Of a DNA stretch of 63,063 nucleotides, positions 95 through 58,620 are shown in pieces. Positions within the stretch are counted from its first letter, which is position 1. Each line of letters opens with the position of its first letter. The notes below the pieces were generated by a model. It saw only the letters and a program-made list of their open reading frames with translations, made no database searches and was not told the DNA's origin. A program made the translations under genes and the position numbers. Source of the stretch: Armatimonadota bacterium (lineage in GTDB: Bacteria; Armatimonadota; Fimbriimonadia; Fimbriimonadales; Fimbriimonadaceae); assembly GCA_020161505.1 (NCBI GenBank), contig JAIUNY010000017.1, positions 1 through 63,063 on the forward strand, given 5' to 3'.

Positions 95-127
95 AGATGA
101 CGTGTCCACAATTTGGGGCGCACTCCA
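95..127 (-). mobile_element. Probable terminal inverted repeat of the IS3-type element
   Basis: Read on the minus strand from 127, the sequence starts TGGAGTGCGCCCCAAATTG and continues with TGGACA. The TG start and the CCCCAAA..TGGACA pattern are typical of IS3-family ends. It lies about 20 to 50 bases upstream of the OrfA start, as expected. The other end and any target duplication are outside the window, so the exact boundary (near 127) is inferred. Confidence 0.55.
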
Positions 128-130
128 TGG

Positions 131-170
131 GGCACCCTCCCCCAAATCGGGAGATTTGGGAGAGGGCGTC
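131..170. repeat. Dispersed palindromic repeat, type I (short copy)
   Basis: CACCCTCCCC, a short variable dyad and GGAGAGGGCGTC form a hairpin. The two arms match those of the 56-bp units at 43546-43601 and 58385-58440. The middle differs (CAAATC/GATTTG here). The IS3-type end at about 127 abuts it, so the insertion sequence may have landed in or next to a longer repeat. Confidence 0.65.
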
Positions 171-1658: not shown

Positions 1659-2338
1659 AGGTCAAGCGCCCATGCGGCTTCTAGCTGATCGTTGTTCAGA
1701 CTCTTCACGTGCATGTCTCCGAATAACGTGTTGTACCGGTACTTGCGCTGCTTTTGCGTGTAGTCCCCATTGGCATCGGCGGCGGTCATCGCGCCTCCGC
1801 TCCCATGCCAGTGCCCGGCGGCGTCGAACATGATGTTCACATCGCTCGGGAGCTCAAATCGGGTCTGAGAATACTGACGGAAAGCGATTTCCGTGCGGAA
1901 GAAGTAACTCGTTTGATGGACATGGTGCATCGTGGGCGACGTCACAAAGCCAATCCATGGTCGATCGTCGAGAACTTGGGTGCCCGAATCTGCCGGGCAC
2001 TTGAAGACGCCGATACTTCGCAGGTAGGGCTGAAGCGCATCCTGAATACGCGGCATCTGAGGGATCAGGGCTTGAAACTCCGGCTCCGCTGCCCAGATCT
2101 CCGGAGCCGCTTGATCGATCGGATCAACCGCAAACGGAAACACGTCGTCGTAGTCGCCCATGTAAAGGAGCATCCCGCGACCGACTTGGTTGAGGTTGCT
2201 CAGGCAGGTCGTCTTCTTGGCTGCCGCCTTGGCCTGGGCAAAAACCGGGAAGATAATCGCGGCCAACAGCGCAACAATCGCAATCACCGTCAGCAATTCG
2301 ATGAGGGTGAACGCTTGTCTTGAACCACGAAATTTCAT
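1655..2338 (-). CDS. Prepilin-type N-terminal methylation protein (pseudopilin)
   Basis: A 227-residue type IV pilin-like protein. After a short basic leader comes [19 protein letters not shown], the signature cleaved and N-methylated by prepilin peptidase, followed by the [20 protein letters not shown] helix common in Armatimonadota and Planctomycetes. The C-terminus carries FGDMHVK, matching the G-D-x-H ending of these proteins. The ATG at 2338 is chosen because it puts the leader just before the cleavage site; GGAGG lies about 9 nt upstream. Role is probably surface or periplasmic; the substrate or assembly machine is unknown. Confidence 0.85.
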   Translation of the reverse strand: MKFRGSRQAFTLIELLTVIAIVALLAAIIFPVFAQAKAAAKKTTCLSNLNQVGRGMLLYMGDYDDVFPFAVDPIDQAAPEIWAAEPEFQALIPQMPRIQDALQPYLRSIGVFKCPADSGTQVLDDRPWIGFVTSPTMHHVHQTSYFFRTEIAFRQYSQTRFELPSDVNIMFDAAGHWHGSGGAMTAADANGDYTQKQRKYRYNTLFGDMHVKSLNNDQLEAAWALDL

Positions 2339-6536: not shown

Positions 6537-7235
6537 ATGCGCCGTCGCGCCTTCACTCTGATAGAGCTGCTCGTGGTCATTGCGATCATCGCGATCCTCG
6601 CCGCGATCCTGTTCCCCGTGTTCGCCCAGGCCAAGCAGTCTGCCAAGCGAGCGGCGTGCCTCTCCAACCTGCGACAGATCGGCCTAGCCAACGAACTTTA
6701 CGTCGCTGATTTCGACGACCTGATGCCCTGGGTTCCCGACACCGAACTCCAACTCACGCCCCCCATCAACTCAGGTGGCCGTCGCTACGCCGCGCTGGGC
6801 TCCTTCCTCCCGCTCTGGCAGCCCTACATGAAATCAGTGGCCCTGCTGAAATCCCCCGCCCTTGGCGGCGACGAGCTCACGGGATGGCGACAGTGGTACG
6901 TGGGAGCCTGGCGCGAAAATGGCGTCGAAACGCCTGCCAAAGGCAAAACCTACTACATCAGCGATCTTCTCGCCGAAACCAATCCGGCAAGTGCCCGATT
7001 CACCCGGGGCAGATCGGCCCTCAGCGTCGCCGACGCCAAGGGACTCTCCGTGAGCGAACAGGAATGGATCATGACCCCGTTCTATGAAGCCAGCTGGTGG
7101 AGCTACTCGCACGGCCTCTGGTCAGTCAATGGATCAACCCCGCCCGCCAGCGGATGGAGCGCCCACGTAGGGGGCCGAAATCAGCTTTACTTCGACATGC
7201 ATGTCAAGTGGATGAAGCGAGATATCCGAAATTAA
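6537..7235 (+). CDS. Prepilin-type N-terminal methylation protein
   Basis: A 232-residue pseudopilin. It opens with a four-residue basic leader and [19 protein letters not shown], cleaved by prepilin peptidase, then [24 protein letters not shown]. The C-terminal part ends in [18 protein letters not shown], the family's F-D-x-H-x-K ending. It is transcribed alone, divergently from the YceI-family gene. Confidence 0.9.
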
Positions 7236-15127: not shown

Positions 15128-15171
15128 CAACCAAACAGCCCTGATCTGAACAGATCAGGGCTGTTTGGTTG
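15128..15171. terminator. Bidirectional hairpin terminator between pckA and phoX
   Basis: A perfect 21-bp inverted repeat (arms 15128-15148 and 15151-15171, separated by AA) lies between two convergent genes. The tip will open into a small TGAACA loop. Outer A- and T-rich pairs (AACCAAACAG / CTGTTTGGTT) give U-rich tails in both directions. Confidence 0.75.
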
Positions 15172-40938: not shown

Positions 40939-40960
40939 CCCGACCCTGAAGAGATCGGGA
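40939..40960. repeat. Dispersed palindromic repeat, type II (single copy)
   Basis: CCCGACCCTGAAGAGATCGGGA is a near-palindrome matching the type II units at 43492-43515, 58329-58349 and 58457-58479 (consensus CCCGATCCYGAAGGGATCGGG). It lies 15 nt after the surE stop and may act as a terminator-like hairpin. A shorter degenerate copy may be at 41779-41798. Confidence 0.55.
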
Positions 40961-41823: not shown

Positions 41824-43479
41824 ATGCCCACTGAACAAGACGGAACGATTTGGCGAATCCTGGAAAAGCTGGAGGATCTGGCCAAAGATGGCGACCCGAA
41901 AGCGCGCAGCTACGTGAATGCCTTGCGCGAAGAGTTGCAAAAGGAAGAGAGATCGCGCGAGGAGCAGCGTCAGCTCATGGCGAAATATGAGGAGGCATAC
42001 CAAAAGCTCACAAGCCCCGCGAATAAGATTGGGGTGTTCCTCAAGCACTTGGAGGACGGTGAGGTTCTGGTGGTGCATGGCGACGCCGAATATGTCGCTC
42101 TCGTCGATCCCGCAGTGCAATTTGATGATTTAAAGCCCGGTGTCCGCATCAAGCTCAACGAGGCTTATGCGGTGATCGGTGTGATGCCGGAGAGTGAAAC
42201 GGGAGCAATCATCAAGGTCAGCCAGGTGCTTGCCGATGGTCGGTTACGGGTGGGGGCGGATCAGCAGAACTCACAAGGTCGACTCATCACACGGGCCGAT
42301 TCGCTCAGCGAAGCCACGATCAAAACGGGCGATGAGGTTCGACTGGATTCGGCAGGTCGGATCGCGGTGGAGCACTTTGTCCAACAAGCGGCTCAGGATT
42401 ACTTCATCGAAGAAATTCCGGAGACCCCCTGGTCGGCGGTGGGAGGACAAGAGGAAGCGATTTCTTTGGTGAAAGAGACGATCGAGCAACCTCTGCTCTA
42501 CCCCGAACTTTACGCTGCCTACGACAAGAAGCCGGTAAAGGGAATCCTGCTGTACGGCCCTCCGGGATGCGGGAAAACGTTGCTCGGCAAGGCGATTGCC
42601 TACAATCTCGCCAAGGACTACAGCGAGCGCACTGGCAAGCCCACCAAGGAGTGCTTCCTGCACATCAGCGGCCCCAAGATTCTGAATATGTGGCTCGGAG
42701 AAACCGAGCGGATGGTCCGCGAGATCTTTGCCACCGCCCGAGAAAAGGCGAAGGAGGGCAACATCGTTGTCGTCTTCATTGATGAAGCTGAGTCGGTGCT
42801 GCGGACACGATCGAATGGTCGGTGGCTGAACATCAGCAACACCGTCGTTCCGCAGTTCTGCGCCGAAATGGATGGTCTCGTGGAGATGGAGAACGTCGTC
42901 ATCGTCCTCACGAGTAACCGCCCCGACTACATCGACCCCGCGATTCTGCGGCCGGAGCGGATTGACCGGAAGGTGCGGATTCGCCGCCCCGATCAGGATT
43001 CGGCTCGCGCGATTCTCTCGATTTACCTGCATGGTCGATTGCCGCTTGATCCCGCCTTGGTGGCGGAGCACGGCGGCGAGGAATGTGCGCGAAAGGCCCT
43101 CGTTGAGGGGGCAGTTGCGCATCTCTGGAGGGTGCATTCTTCGACCGAGTTTCTTCGGATTCAGACCCGCGCCGGAGGCTCACAGAGCCTCTATTGGAAG
43201 GACTTGGTGTCGGGGGCTCTGCTGAAGTCGATTGTGGACCGAGCAAAGGACACCGCGATTCGACGGGCGATTGCAGATCGTGATGTCCCGACGGGCATCG
43301 GAATGGAAGATCTGCAAGAGGCGATCTCGGCGGAGTATCGCGAGAACGAAATCTTCCCGAAATCCGACGCAGTGGAAGACTGGCTGAAGCTGCTTGATTT
43401 CGAGCCGGAAGCGGTGGTCGGCATCAAGCCGGTCGGCAAGGATCGGGGTCAGGAGATTGTCAAGAAGTCCGTGATCTAG
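41824..43479 (+). CDS. Proteasome-associated AAA+ ATPase (Mpa/ARC-like)
   Basis: A 551-residue hexameric ring ATPase. An N-terminal coiled coil (about 25-60, KARSYVNALREELQKEERSREEQRQLMAKYEE) and tandem OB folds (about 70-195) precede the AAA core: Walker A YGPPGCGKTLLGKAIA, Walker B VVFIDEAESVL, and sensor/second region SNRPDYIDPAILRPERIDRKV. Mpa/ARC unfolds Pup- or UBact-tagged substrates for the 20S proteasome in other bacteria. Here the C-terminus is KKSVI instead of a clear proteasome-docking HbYX-type tail. No prcA, prcB, dop or pafA is adjacent. Confidence 0.87.
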   Translation: MPTEQDGTIWRILEKLEDLAKDGDPKARSYVNALREELQKEERSREEQRQLMAKYEEAYQKLTSPANKIGVFLKHLEDGEVLVVHGDAEYVALVDPAVQFDDLKPGVRIKLNEAYAVIGVMPESETGAIIKVSQVLADGRLRVGADQQNSQGRLITRADSLSEATIKTGDEVRLDSAGRIAVEHFVQQAAQDYFIEEIPETPWSAVGGQEEAISLVKETIEQPLLYPELYAAYDKKPVKGILLYGPPGCGKTLLGKAIAYNLAKDYSERTGKPTKECFLHISGPKILNMWLGETERMVREIFATAREKAKEGNIVVVFIDEAESVLRTRSNGRWLNISNTVVPQFCAEMDGLVEMENVVIVLTSNRPDYIDPAILRPERIDRKVRIRRPDQDSARAILSIYLHGRLPLDPALVAEHGGEECARKALVEGAVAHLWRVHSSTEFLRIQTRAGGSQSLYWKDLVSGALLKSIVDRAKDTAIRRAIADRDVPTGIGMEDLQEAISAEYRENEIFPKSDAVEDWLKLLDFEPEAVVGIKPVGKDRGQEIVKKSVI

Positions 43480-43490
43480 CCCCGGTGCTT

Positions 43491-43705
43491 CGATCCCGTC
43501 AGGGTCGCGATCGGGTTTGATGTGGATCTAAGTGGAGGGGTGTTCGGCCCCTCCCGGCCTCCGATCACTCTCCCCGAGTCAAGCTTGGAGAGGGCGTCGA
43601 TCCTGAGCTCATCGATCCCGACCCTTAAGGCATCGGGGCACCCCGGGGGGCGTTTGATCCTGACCCATCACAGATCGGGGCACCAGGGTTTGAGATACCC
43701 CGATA
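43491..43705. repeat. Cluster of dispersed palindromic repeats (types II-I-II-II)
   Basis: The gap between the Mpa-like gene and gcvT has no gene. It holds a 56-bp type I unit (43546-43601) that matches 58385-58440 at about 49 of 56 positions. Around it are type II units GATCCCGTCAGGGTCGCGATCGG (about 43492), GATCCCGACCCTTAAGGCATCGGGG (about 43615) and GATCCTGACCCATCACAGATCGGGG (about 43656). It lies between two convergent genes, and several hairpins are possible. Confidence 0.75.
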
Positions 43706-54217: not shown

Positions 54218-55030
54218 ATGACTCGACGCGCATTCACTCTCATCGAACTCCTCGTTGTCATCGCCATCATCGCCATCCTGGCGGCCATCCTCTTCCCGGT
54301 CTTCGCAGTGGCGAAGAATTCGGCCAAGAAAACGCAAAGCCTCTCCAACGTGCGACAGATCGGCACCGCGTCGATGCTCTACCTTGCCGACAACGACGAT
54401 GTGACCCCGCCGGTGTTCTGGTTCAACCCGCTTGCCACCAGCTTCCCGACCAGCCAAGGCTTCCATTACTTCCCGCTTCTGCTGATGCCTTACACGAAGA
54501 ACGAGTCGATCTTCCTTTGCCCGAACGACCGATTCACGGATCCTGTTCTCACGGGCCCGGACGGCAAGGGTCGATTCGATACCAGCGGAACATTCCGTTA
54601 CTACTTCCTCGGAGCGAACCCGAGCTACGGCTACAACTACCGCTACCTGAACCAATATCTGGGCATGGCGGTTGTGGGCGGCATGCCGACCCGGCAGTTC
54701 GGTGGCGTTTCCTCCACCTCACTGGGTAGCACCTCGCAGACCGTGATGTTCGCCGAAGCCACGATGAAGAATCTGCGAGGCGTGCAAAGCGCGGTCGGCT
54801 ACTCGCTCATCGAGCCGCCGTTCGCCGTCGCCGGAACCACCTACGCAGGGTGGACGGGCACCTTCCCCGATGCCCGAAGCCAAGGCCAGCTCTGGGGCCG
54901 ATTCGATAAGGATCGCGTGCTCGCCACCTTCATGGACGGTCATGCCAAGTTCACGAGCATCAAGTCTCTGCGCGGACAAGGCACCACGGAGGCCGAGGTC
55001 AACCGATACTGGAACGGCAACGGCGACTAA
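54218..55030 (+). CDS. Prepilin-type N-terminal methylation protein
   Basis: A 270-residue pseudopilin. [18 protein letters not shown] is the cleavage and methylation motif, followed by LFPVFAVAKNSAKKTQSLSNVRQIGTASMLYLADNDD. The C-terminal FMDGHAKFTSIKSL is the DGH ending of the family. The ATG at 54218 has GACAAT six nt upstream. Transcribed alone. Confidence 0.9.
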   Translation: MTRRAFTLIELLVVIAIIAILAAILFPVFAVAKNSAKKTQSLSNVRQIGTASMLYLADNDDVTPPVFWFNPLATSFPTSQGFHYFPLLLMPYTKNESIFLCPNDRFTDPVLTGPDGKGRFDTSGTFRYYFLGANPSYGYNYRYLNQYLGMAVVGGMPTRQFGGVSSTSLGSTSQTVMFAEATMKNLRGVQSAVGYSLIEPPFAVAGTTYAGWTGTFPDARSQGQLWGRFDKDRVLATFMDGHAKFTSIKSLRGQGTTEAEVNRYWNGNGD

Positions 55031-57084: not shown

Positions 57085-57377
57085 CCCGCACCGTTGCTCG
57101 GCAGATATACGGCGGCATGCTTTGGTTGATGCGTCGGCCTTTCATCCGCCGGATGCAGAGGGGATCACTGAATTTGATCCCGGCAAGCCGCCGCGAAAAG
57201 GCTCGGCAGAGCTATTTGCGTCAGGAGCGTTTCGCCCGTCGAATTGGTCTGCCTTTGGTGACATTTGTTGTCGGACTGGCCTTTTTGAGCATCCTGGCAA
57301 CGGCGATGACCATGCTCATTCTTGAGGGGATCAATCAGGGCTGGTTTCTTGTTCCCACAAGGTCTTCTGGGCTCTAG
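57066..57377 (+). CDS. Small basic single-helix membrane protein
   Basis: A 103-residue protein, family not recognised. The first 60 residues are basic (RRPFIRRMQRGSLNLIPASRREKARQSYLRQERFARR), followed by one membrane helix (LPLVTFVVGLAFLSILATAMTMLIL). GTG at 57066 overlaps the previous gene by 19 nt; an ATG at 57117 (86 residues) is equally possible. The 3' end overlaps the mutY tail by 47 bp. Confidence 0.5.
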   Translation: MLTDGITRTVARQIYGGMLWLMRRPFIRRMQRGSLNLIPASRREKARQSYLRQERFARRIGLPLVTFVVGLAFLSILATAMTMLILEGINQGWFLVPTRSSGL

Positions 57378-58620
57378 ATTTCTTCCAGAGGGTGAGCGCT
57401 TTCTGCGAGGGAGCGGGCAGCGCGTACTGAGTCAGCTCCTCTTCAGTAACCCAGATCAGGTCTTGAGTGGGAGTTGCCGCTTCAGCATGGTAGAGATCAA
57501 CCGTAATCTCGTGATTGGTCACCACATGGTTGAACTGACCAAATTGGGAGAGCGTCGCCTCGGTCATCAGATTCAGTCCTTCCAGTGATGCTTCTCGCGG
57601 AAACTCGTAAAGCCCCGCCCACCATCTTCCCTCGGGCACCGGGCGAATCGCAAATTTCCCATCGTGCGTGAGGATGACCACTGAATGGTGGAGAGATTTT
57701 TTCTCCGCCCTTGGTTTGGGTGCCGGATAATCGGCCACTCGGGATTCAGCGAAGGCTTGGCACCACGGCTGAACCGGGCATGCTCTGCAAAGCAGATTCA
57801 CCGGCTTGCACACCGTGGCCCCGAGTTCCATGAGAGCTTGGTTCCAGTCTCCAGGCGACGCTTGCGCTGGGTGGCCTGGGAGGAGCTGACTCTCTGCCCA
57901 CTTCCAGGCGGCATCGGTGAGCGACTTTGCGCTAGCCTGGTTGGCGGTCAGGCGGGAGACGACTCGCTCGACGTTGCCATCCACCAGAGGAGCGGGCTCA
58001 TTCTGGGCAATCGAAGCAATCGCGCCCGCCGTGTAACGGCCGACGCCTGGCACGGCGAGCCATTCCTTTGCGGTTTGGGGGATGCCATTTTGAATGACCC
58101 ATCTAGCCCCCTCGTGGAGCATCCTCGCACGGCGATAGTAGCCGAGTCCTTGCCAGTGGGCAAGAACATCATCGAGCGAGGCTTCGGCGAGAAGCTTGAT
58201 TGTCGGAAATCGGATCAACCATTTGGTGTAGTAGGGGGTGACCGTCGCAACCGTTGTCTGTTGCAGCATGATCTCGCTCACCCAGACTTCGTAGACTCTT
58301 TGTTCAGGATTCTTGAAAGTTGGGTGCCCCGATCCCTTCAGGGTCGGGAGCTCGTGGGGGGTGTAGCCAAGCTCTGTGGTACTCAGCCCCTCCCGGCCTT
58401 CGGCCACCCTCCCCGAGGCAAGCTCGGAGAGGGCGTCGATTGGGGGTTCGGCATTTCCCGATCCTGAAGGGATCGGGGCACCTGAAGTAACCGAGACTCC
58501 CGATCCCGAAGCAATCGGGGCACTCAAGCTGGCAGATCCAGGTGGGACTCGCCACGGCATCGACCGAGCATTCGCCTGGTACCAGCCCAGCAAAGCCTCT
58601 TGAAACTCAGAACTGCTCAC
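57331..58620 (-). CDS. mutY: A/G-specific adenine glycosylase MutY with repeat-derived insertion
   Basis: A 429-residue base-excision repair enzyme that removes A opposite 8-oxoG. SEIMLQQTTVATV (catalytic Glu), VPGVGRYTAGAIASIA (helix-hairpin-helix), PLVDGNVERVVSRL (catalytic Asp), the iron-sulphur Cys set CKPVNLLCRACPVQPWC and a NUDIX-like C-terminal domain are intact. Between MPWR (residue 24) and YEVWVSE (110) there are about 80 extra residues (GSG, APIPSGSG, APIASGSG motifs) where normal MutY has about 6. The extra DNA (about 58309-58545) is a cluster of the dispersed palindromic repeats. It overlaps pyrF by 4 nt. Confidence 0.92.
   Translation of the reverse strand: MSSSEFQEALLGWYQANARSMPWRVPPGSASLSAPIASGSGVSVTSGAPIPSGSGNAEPPIDALSELASGRVAEGREGLSTTELGYTPHELPTLKGSGHPTFKNPEQRVYEVWVSEIMLQQTTVATVTPYYTKWLIRFPTIKLLAEASLDDVLAHWQGLGYYRRARMLHEGARWVIQNGIPQTAKEWLAVPGVGRYTAGAIASIAQNEPAPLVDGNVERVVSRLTANQASAKSLTDAAWKWAESQLLPGHPAQASPGDWNQALMELGATVCKPVNLLCRACPVQPWCQAFAESRVADYPAPKPRAEKKSLHHSVVILTHDGKFAIRPVPEGRWWAGLYEFPREASLEGLNLMTEATLSQFGQFNHVVTNHEITVDLYHAEAATPTQDLIWVTEEELTQYALPAPSQKALTLWKKSRAQKTLWEQETSPD
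58329..58522. repeat. Repeat cluster inside mutY (type II, I, II, II)
   Basis: Type II hairpins at about 58329-58349 (CCCGATCCCTTCAGGGTCGGG), 58457-58480 (CCCGATCCTGAAGGGATCGGGG) and 58499-58521 (CCCGATCCCGAAGCAATCGGGG) flank a 56-bp type I unit at 58385-58440. The cluster is in frame with mutY and codes for its extra segment. The layout parallels the intergenic cluster at 43491-43705. Confidence 0.8.

What the first reader, a model, noticed from the sequence alone, without database searches (positions are those of the whole stretch)
58309..58545. Palindromic repeats inserted in frame within mutY
MutY has about 80 extra residues between MPWR (24) and YEVWVSE (110), where other MutY proteins have about six. 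The coding DNA of exactly that segment is a cluster of the same hairpin units (types I and II) seen between genes at 43491-43705. All catalytic and iron-sulphur motifs remain. The pattern resembles the Rickettsia palindromic elements, which also enter reading frames without breaking the gene. That a similar element works in an Armatimonadota-like genome appears undescribed. The encoded peptide is low-complexity (Gly, Ser, Pro, Ala), so it may form a tolerated loop.
Basis: partly seen in the sequence, partly recalled or inferred. Interest (0 to 1): 0.75.

Follow-up and report, generated by a model that had tools for sequence, protein, structure and literature searches.

The report
Hairpin repeats inserted inside mutY
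A bacterium of the Armatimonadota carries about 80 copies of a small hairpin-forming DNA repeat, and a cluster of them has landed inside the DNA-repair gene mutY apparently without breaking it, adding an 80-residue floppy loop; the same happened in at least four other genes, a known but uncommon habit of such repeats, here in a lineage where I found no earlier report.

Summary
Confirmed. The only mutY of this genome (3.14 Mb, Fimbriimonadaceae by its MutY neighbours) has 85 codons between PWR and YEVW. In 70 other MutY proteins the gap is 5 (66) or 7 (4). The extra 80 codons are mostly four palindromic units: type I (25 nt, tag GTGC, 8-bp stem with one bulged base) three times, type II once. 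The genome holds about 80 type I units, many as inverted pairs about 100 bp apart. AlphaFold gives an intact MutY body (pLDDT mostly above 90, Z 36 to bacterial MutY) with residues 35-98 disordered.

New here: four more genes with in-frame insertions of the same units: cysteine desulfurase (+51 aa), nitrilase-like hydrolase (+18), DUF5693 membrane protein (+about 63), nucleotidyltransferase (about +10). Relatives lack the first three; the fourth rests on one PDB homologue.

The elements behave like REP/REPIN-type repeats and, inside genes, like Rickettsia palindromic elements (RPE). They carry neither the GTAG nor the CGTC tag, and the genome has no Y1 (RAYT-type) transposase. Of 85 family genomes only this one, plus one with a cousin set, has the family. 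In-frame REPs, also in repair genes and with clusters of 43-82 aa, are published (PMC3733652). So: a new family of a known kind.

The parts
57331..58620 (-). mutY, A/G-specific adenine glycosylase, 429 aa, GTG start overlapping the stop of pyrF (GTGA); single copy in the genome
58294..58548 (-). 85-codon stretch between PWR and YEVW where 70 other MutYs have 5 or 7 codons (inserted length about 240 nt)
58499..58523 (+). type I unit (diverged); read on the minus strand as SAPIASGSG
58457..58481 (+). type I unit (1 mismatch to the pattern); read as GAPIPSGSG
58388..58433 (+). type II double hairpin unit; read on the minus strand as DALSELASGRVAEGREG
58324..58348 (-). type I unit, exact form, inverted relative to the other two; read as LPTLKGSGHP; with 58456-58482 forms 27-nt inverted arms, 96% complementary
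43484..43686 (.). intergenic cluster with the same units (diverged I, II+, I+, diverged I+), directly after the ORF ending at 43476
40939..40959 (+). single type I unit
125..166 (+). diverged type II unit near the contig end

Best explanation
The segment is a cluster of a lineage-specific, REP/REPIN-like palindromic element family that inserted into mutY and is translated. Shown: the units are dispersed genome-wide; relatives lack the segment; the frame stays open; the rest of MutY keeps its conserved residues and predicted fold. Inferred: single units and inverted pairs (GTGC ends outward) move as small non-autonomous elements, perhaps through a single-stranded hairpin intermediate. Most insertions into genes were lost. 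The few that remain landed in loops, with a length divisible by three and in a reading register giving a small Gly/Ser/Pro-rich peptide, which hangs off the protein as a disordered loop. Later insertions next to or inside earlier ones built up clusters such as that in mutY. The loop most likely has no function.
For: Genome-wide family: 116 BLAST pieces, 101 against 5 control, 71 sites mapped. Absence in relatives: MutY gap 5 or 7 in 70 proteins; cysteine desulfurase insert (about 51 aa) absent in all relatives aligned; nitrilase-like insert of 18 aa absent in 15 and DUF5693 insert of about 63 aa absent in 19; nucleotidyltransferase about 10 aa longer than PDB 3pnn at the unit. Intact protein: invariant columns of 40 MutYs kept on both sides of the insert; AlphaFold body pLDDT mostly above 90, residues 35-98 below 50; Z 36.0, rmsd 1.8 over 332 residues to bacterial MutY. 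Hairpin nature: 92% of stem cells paired, covariation score above all 500 shuffles, RNA z -7.0 and DNA z -5.7. About 13 inverted pairs. The register giving APIPSGSG is used in 3 of 3 genes with units in that orientation, and PTLKGSGHP in 3 of 4 in the other (chance 0.04 and 0.31).
Against: No transposition is seen: no strain of the same species with an empty site is held; the nearest MutYs are only about 50% identical. No Y1 transposase in this genome, so the mover is unknown. No consistent target-site duplication was seen in the inverted pairs (inspection). Expression and activity of the enlarged MutY are not tested. The elements are no more stop-free than their composition predicts, so nothing shows adaptation to life inside genes.
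Confidence: 0.85

Rival explanations
1. The loop has been taken over for a function, such as regulating MutY or contacting partners, and is kept by selection.
For: Only MutY in the genome and retained; register bias towards small Gly/Ser/Pro peptides; repair genes are recurrent REP targets in other phyla (PMC3733652).
Against: Predicted disorder; same units in four unrelated genes and in dozens of other sites; no conserved peptide beyond the repeat sequence; register bias can be explained by filtering against harmful peptides.
Confidence: 0.07
2. The insert is transcribed but not in the protein: the ribosome skips it or the RNA is processed, so MutY is made with a normal loop.
For: The insert folds very strongly as RNA (-127.5 kcal/mol, z -7.0); hairpin elements skipped by ribosomes are known from yeast mitochondria (own knowledge).
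Against: All five inserts are in frame and stop-free, which skipping would not need, although I looked only for open frames; nothing of the kind is described in the papers read on these repeats.
Confidence: 0.03
3. Mis-assembly: repeat copies were joined into mutY by the assembler.
For: Some contigs of this genome begin in the repeats (C13:1-174, C28:107-335).
Against: mutY reads through in one frame on both sides and overlaps pyrF by GTGA; four other genes show clean, in-frame insertions.
Confidence: 0.03

Closest known systems
Intragenic REPs (GTAG- and CGTC-tagged palindromic repeats, Di Nocera et al. 2013, PMC3733652)
   Same: Short imperfect palindromes in tens of copies, frequent inverted pairs with spacers of mostly 20-100 bp, some inside ORFs in frame, clusters coding 43-82 aa, DNA repair genes among the targets.
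   Different: Tag is GTGC, not GTAG or CGTC; phylum not among those named in that paper; composite with a second, larger hairpin (type II).
Rickettsia palindromic elements (RPE; reviewed in PMC10969869)
   Same: Palindromic elements that sit in frame in unrelated genes and add a peptide without killing the gene.
   Different: No CGTC tag (RPE-4 and RPE-6 have it); only 5 of 71 mapped sites are verified inside genes; no single conserved peptide, several registers are read; host lineage is not an intracellular one (own knowledge).
REPINs with RAYT transposases (Bertels and Rainey 2011, PMC3116915, known from title and abstract only)
   Same: Inverted pairs of a REP-like unit about 100 bp apart, also found singly.
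   Different: No Y1/RAYT transposase in a 99.94% complete genome; Y1 genes of a relative are flanked by other palindromes.
MITEs
   Same: Small repeats without their own transposase, with 27-nt inverted ends and internal sequence.
   Different: No consistent target-site duplication seen; each inverted end is itself a hairpin and also occurs alone.

Membership tests
GTAG REP (RAYT-linked) | unpaired GTAG tag at one end of the hairpin | tested here: not met
   79 type I units: tag positions 1-4 read GTGC (74, 74, 75 and 72 of 79)
GTAG REP (RAYT-linked) | Y1 (RAYT-type) tyrosine transposase in the genome | tested here: not met
   PF01797 gives no match in G000 while control genomes ring
CGTC REP (includes RPE-4/RPE-6) | unpaired CGTC tag and stem beginning with A-T pairs | tested here: not met
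   type I tag GTGC, stem CCCGA/TCGGG; type II is often followed by CGTC but has a different, longer stem
REP-like repeats in the broad sense | 20-40 nt imperfect palindrome in many dispersed copies | tested here: met
REP-like repeats in the broad sense | inverted pairs (dimers) | tested here: met
   about 13 of 71 sites hold I-...I+ with starts 35-211 bp apart
REP-like repeats in the broad sense | mostly intergenic | tested here: inconclusive
   5 homology-checked intragenic sites of 71; no full gene annotation was available and the codon-usage test is weak
Rickettsia palindromic elements | in-frame insertion into genes whose homologues lack it | tested here: met
   mutY, cysteine desulfurase, nitrilase-like, DUF5693
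Rickettsia palindromic elements | sequence kinship with RPE families | not tested
   RPE sequences were not fetched; the CGTC tag published for RPE-4 and RPE-6 is absent
MITE | target-site duplications | tested here: inconclusive
   flanks of inverted pairs read by eye; one possible 4-bp TTGA repeat (C11:81168-81293), otherwise none

The most novel reading that the evidence does not exclude
A palindromic element family moved by an unidentified, non-Y1 enzyme is reshaping proteins in one Armatimonadota species, with survivors filtered for a particular reading register, so that it works as a lineage-specific generator of disordered protein loops, including in a mutation-avoidance enzyme.
Probability: 0.15. 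Interest if true: 0.65.

Novelty: new member of a known kind. Interest (0 to 1): 0.45.

Why it matters
It extends in-frame palindromic insertions to a phylum where I found no report, with four clean cases (mutY, cysteine desulfurase, nitrilase-like hydrolase, DUF5693) and a fifth weaker one, all in one genome. It also gives a repeat family that has spread to about 80 copies with no Y1 transposase present, which bears on the open question of what moves REP-like repeats that lack a dedicated transposase. Finally it warns annotators: this MutY scores below the NCBI equivalog cut-off, with the match starting only after the insert.

Tried and rejected
Chance similarity of the clusters: rejected (101 against 5 control). 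Segment conserved in homologues: rejected. Repeats specially adapted to be stop-free: not supported; 3.43 open frames per site against 3.51 in shuffles. RAYT association: rejected in this genome; Y1 genes of the cousin genome G079 are flanked by other palindromes. Spread by plasmids or phages: no match, exact type I unit not in viral contigs. Known RNA family: none. Alternative start after the insert: would lose the conserved WY...PWR helix that is intact. Many long ORFs over repeats (for example C31:91455-94007, C33:1505-2497) look antisense or spurious and were not counted. C16:14427 (two type II units near the start of an ORF of more than 990 residues) was left out because the start is uncertain and no Pfam family matched.

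Full report
WHAT IS THERE. The window is contig C3 of a 38-contig, 3.14 Mb genome that is 99.94% complete. Its MutY matches best Fimbriimonadaceae and other Armatimonadota records. ORF 57331-58620 (-) is MutY: HhH-GPD, HHH and NUDIX_4 domains, the only MutY of the genome, with a GTG start overlapping the stop of pyrF. Between PWR and YEVW there are 85 codons. In 70 MutY proteins from relatives and other phyla the same gap is 5 (66) or 7 (4), and the 40-sequence alignment shows one clean insertion with conserved columns on both sides.

WHAT FILLS IT. About 205 of the 240 extra bases are palindromic units and their spacers: type I three times and type II once. Type I is 25 nt: a tag GTGC, a stem CCCGA(T)CCC / GGGTCGGG with one bulged T, and a loop TTCA; conservation falls off sharply outside, apart from GG before and A after. 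Stem pairing holds in 92% of cells of 42 variants, the covariation score exceeds all 500 shuffles, and the cousin genome G079 has a G-C to C-G exchange on both sides of one pair. These shuffles ignore relatedness, so this is moderate evidence. Type II is a larger double hairpin of about 46 nt.

GENOME-WIDE FAMILY. A type I pattern gives 101 places with up to 3 mismatches against 5 for the control, 79 of those listed with at most 2. Profile searches of the window and 60 fetched stretches gave 71 sites. About 13 sites hold type I as an inverted pair with tags outward. Larger composites of about 650-800 bp with further hairpins exist (C11:289129-289930, C25:53096-53741). The intergenic cluster at 43484-43686 aligns with the mutY cluster over 118 nt at 76%.

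OTHER GENES. Sites in open frames with protein homology on both sides: (a) C10 cysteine desulfurase, inverted type I pair, about 51 aa, absent in all aligned relatives, congeners included; (b) C12 nitrilase-like hydrolase, one unit, 18 aa, absent in 15; (c) C16 DUF5693 protein, I+ II- I+, about 63 aa, absent in 19; (d) C7 nucleotidyltransferase, one unit, about 10 aa more than PDB 3pnn. With mutY that makes five. In the GTGC orientation three registers are open, and all three genes use the one that reads APIPSGSG; in the other orientation two are open, and three of four genes use PTLKGSGHP. The numbers are small (0.04 and 0.31 by chance), but the direction fits filtering for small, soluble peptides. 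The elements are not more stop-free than expected from composition.

PROTEIN. AlphaFold with 40 sequences gives pLDDT mostly above 90 outside and below 50 at residues 35-98. The body aligns to bacterial MutY bound to DNA with Z 36.0, rmsd 1.8 over 332 residues. So the insert is predicted to be a disordered loop between the first helix and the helix carrying SEIMLQQT. Activity is not shown.

SPREAD AND MOVER. Among 85 genomes of the family the type I pattern is found 67 times here, 6 times as variants in G079 of another genus, and nowhere else; congeners G005-G007 have only weak pieces. Plasmids, phages and viral contigs have none. The Y1 transposase family is absent here. In G079 it is present but flanked by other palindromes. 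So the mover is unknown: lost, foreign or of another class.

COMPARISON. REPs inside genes, in frame, in pairs or clusters coding 20-82 aa and often in repair genes, are published for several phyla (PMC3733652). RPEs are the extreme case (PMC10969869). This family works the same way but fails the tag and transposase tests of the named REP families, and it sits in a phylum for which I found no report (the library holds only open-licence papers). Verdict: real, well supported, a new family of a known kind, with mutY as a good example and three further clean ones.

Noticed in passing
G000 C25:53096-53741 (L187) and C11:289129-289930 (L166): Large composites of type I, half type II and further hairpins (CCGAATCCTC...GAGGATTCGG, GGGCTAACGCCC) in repeated order, possibly a longer element of about 310 bp of which the small units are parts.
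   Followed up: partly
G079 C36 (L237:980-2030) and C98 (L241:1300-2000): IS200-like Y1 transposase genes embedded in arrays of other palindromes (ACCCTGGAAGGGT, CCCCGGTGTCGAAGACCCGGGG), an arrangement like published RAYT loci, in Fimbriimonadaceae.
   Followed up: partly
G000 C16:14427-17402 (L172): An ORF of more than 990 residues with two type II units near its N-terminus; may be another in-frame case or a misread start.
   Followed up: no
window 2193-2314, 6543-6683, 54224-54364: Repeats of 122-141 nt at 70-78% identity are the shared start of pilin-like proteins ([19 protein letters not shown]), not mobile elements.
   Followed up: yes
window 15128-15171: Perfect 21-bp inverted repeat with a 2-nt gap, perhaps a terminator.
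   Followed up: no
window 58309-58545: The insert RNA near the 5' end of mutY folds at -127.5 kcal/mol, which could slow translation of mutY.
   Followed up: no
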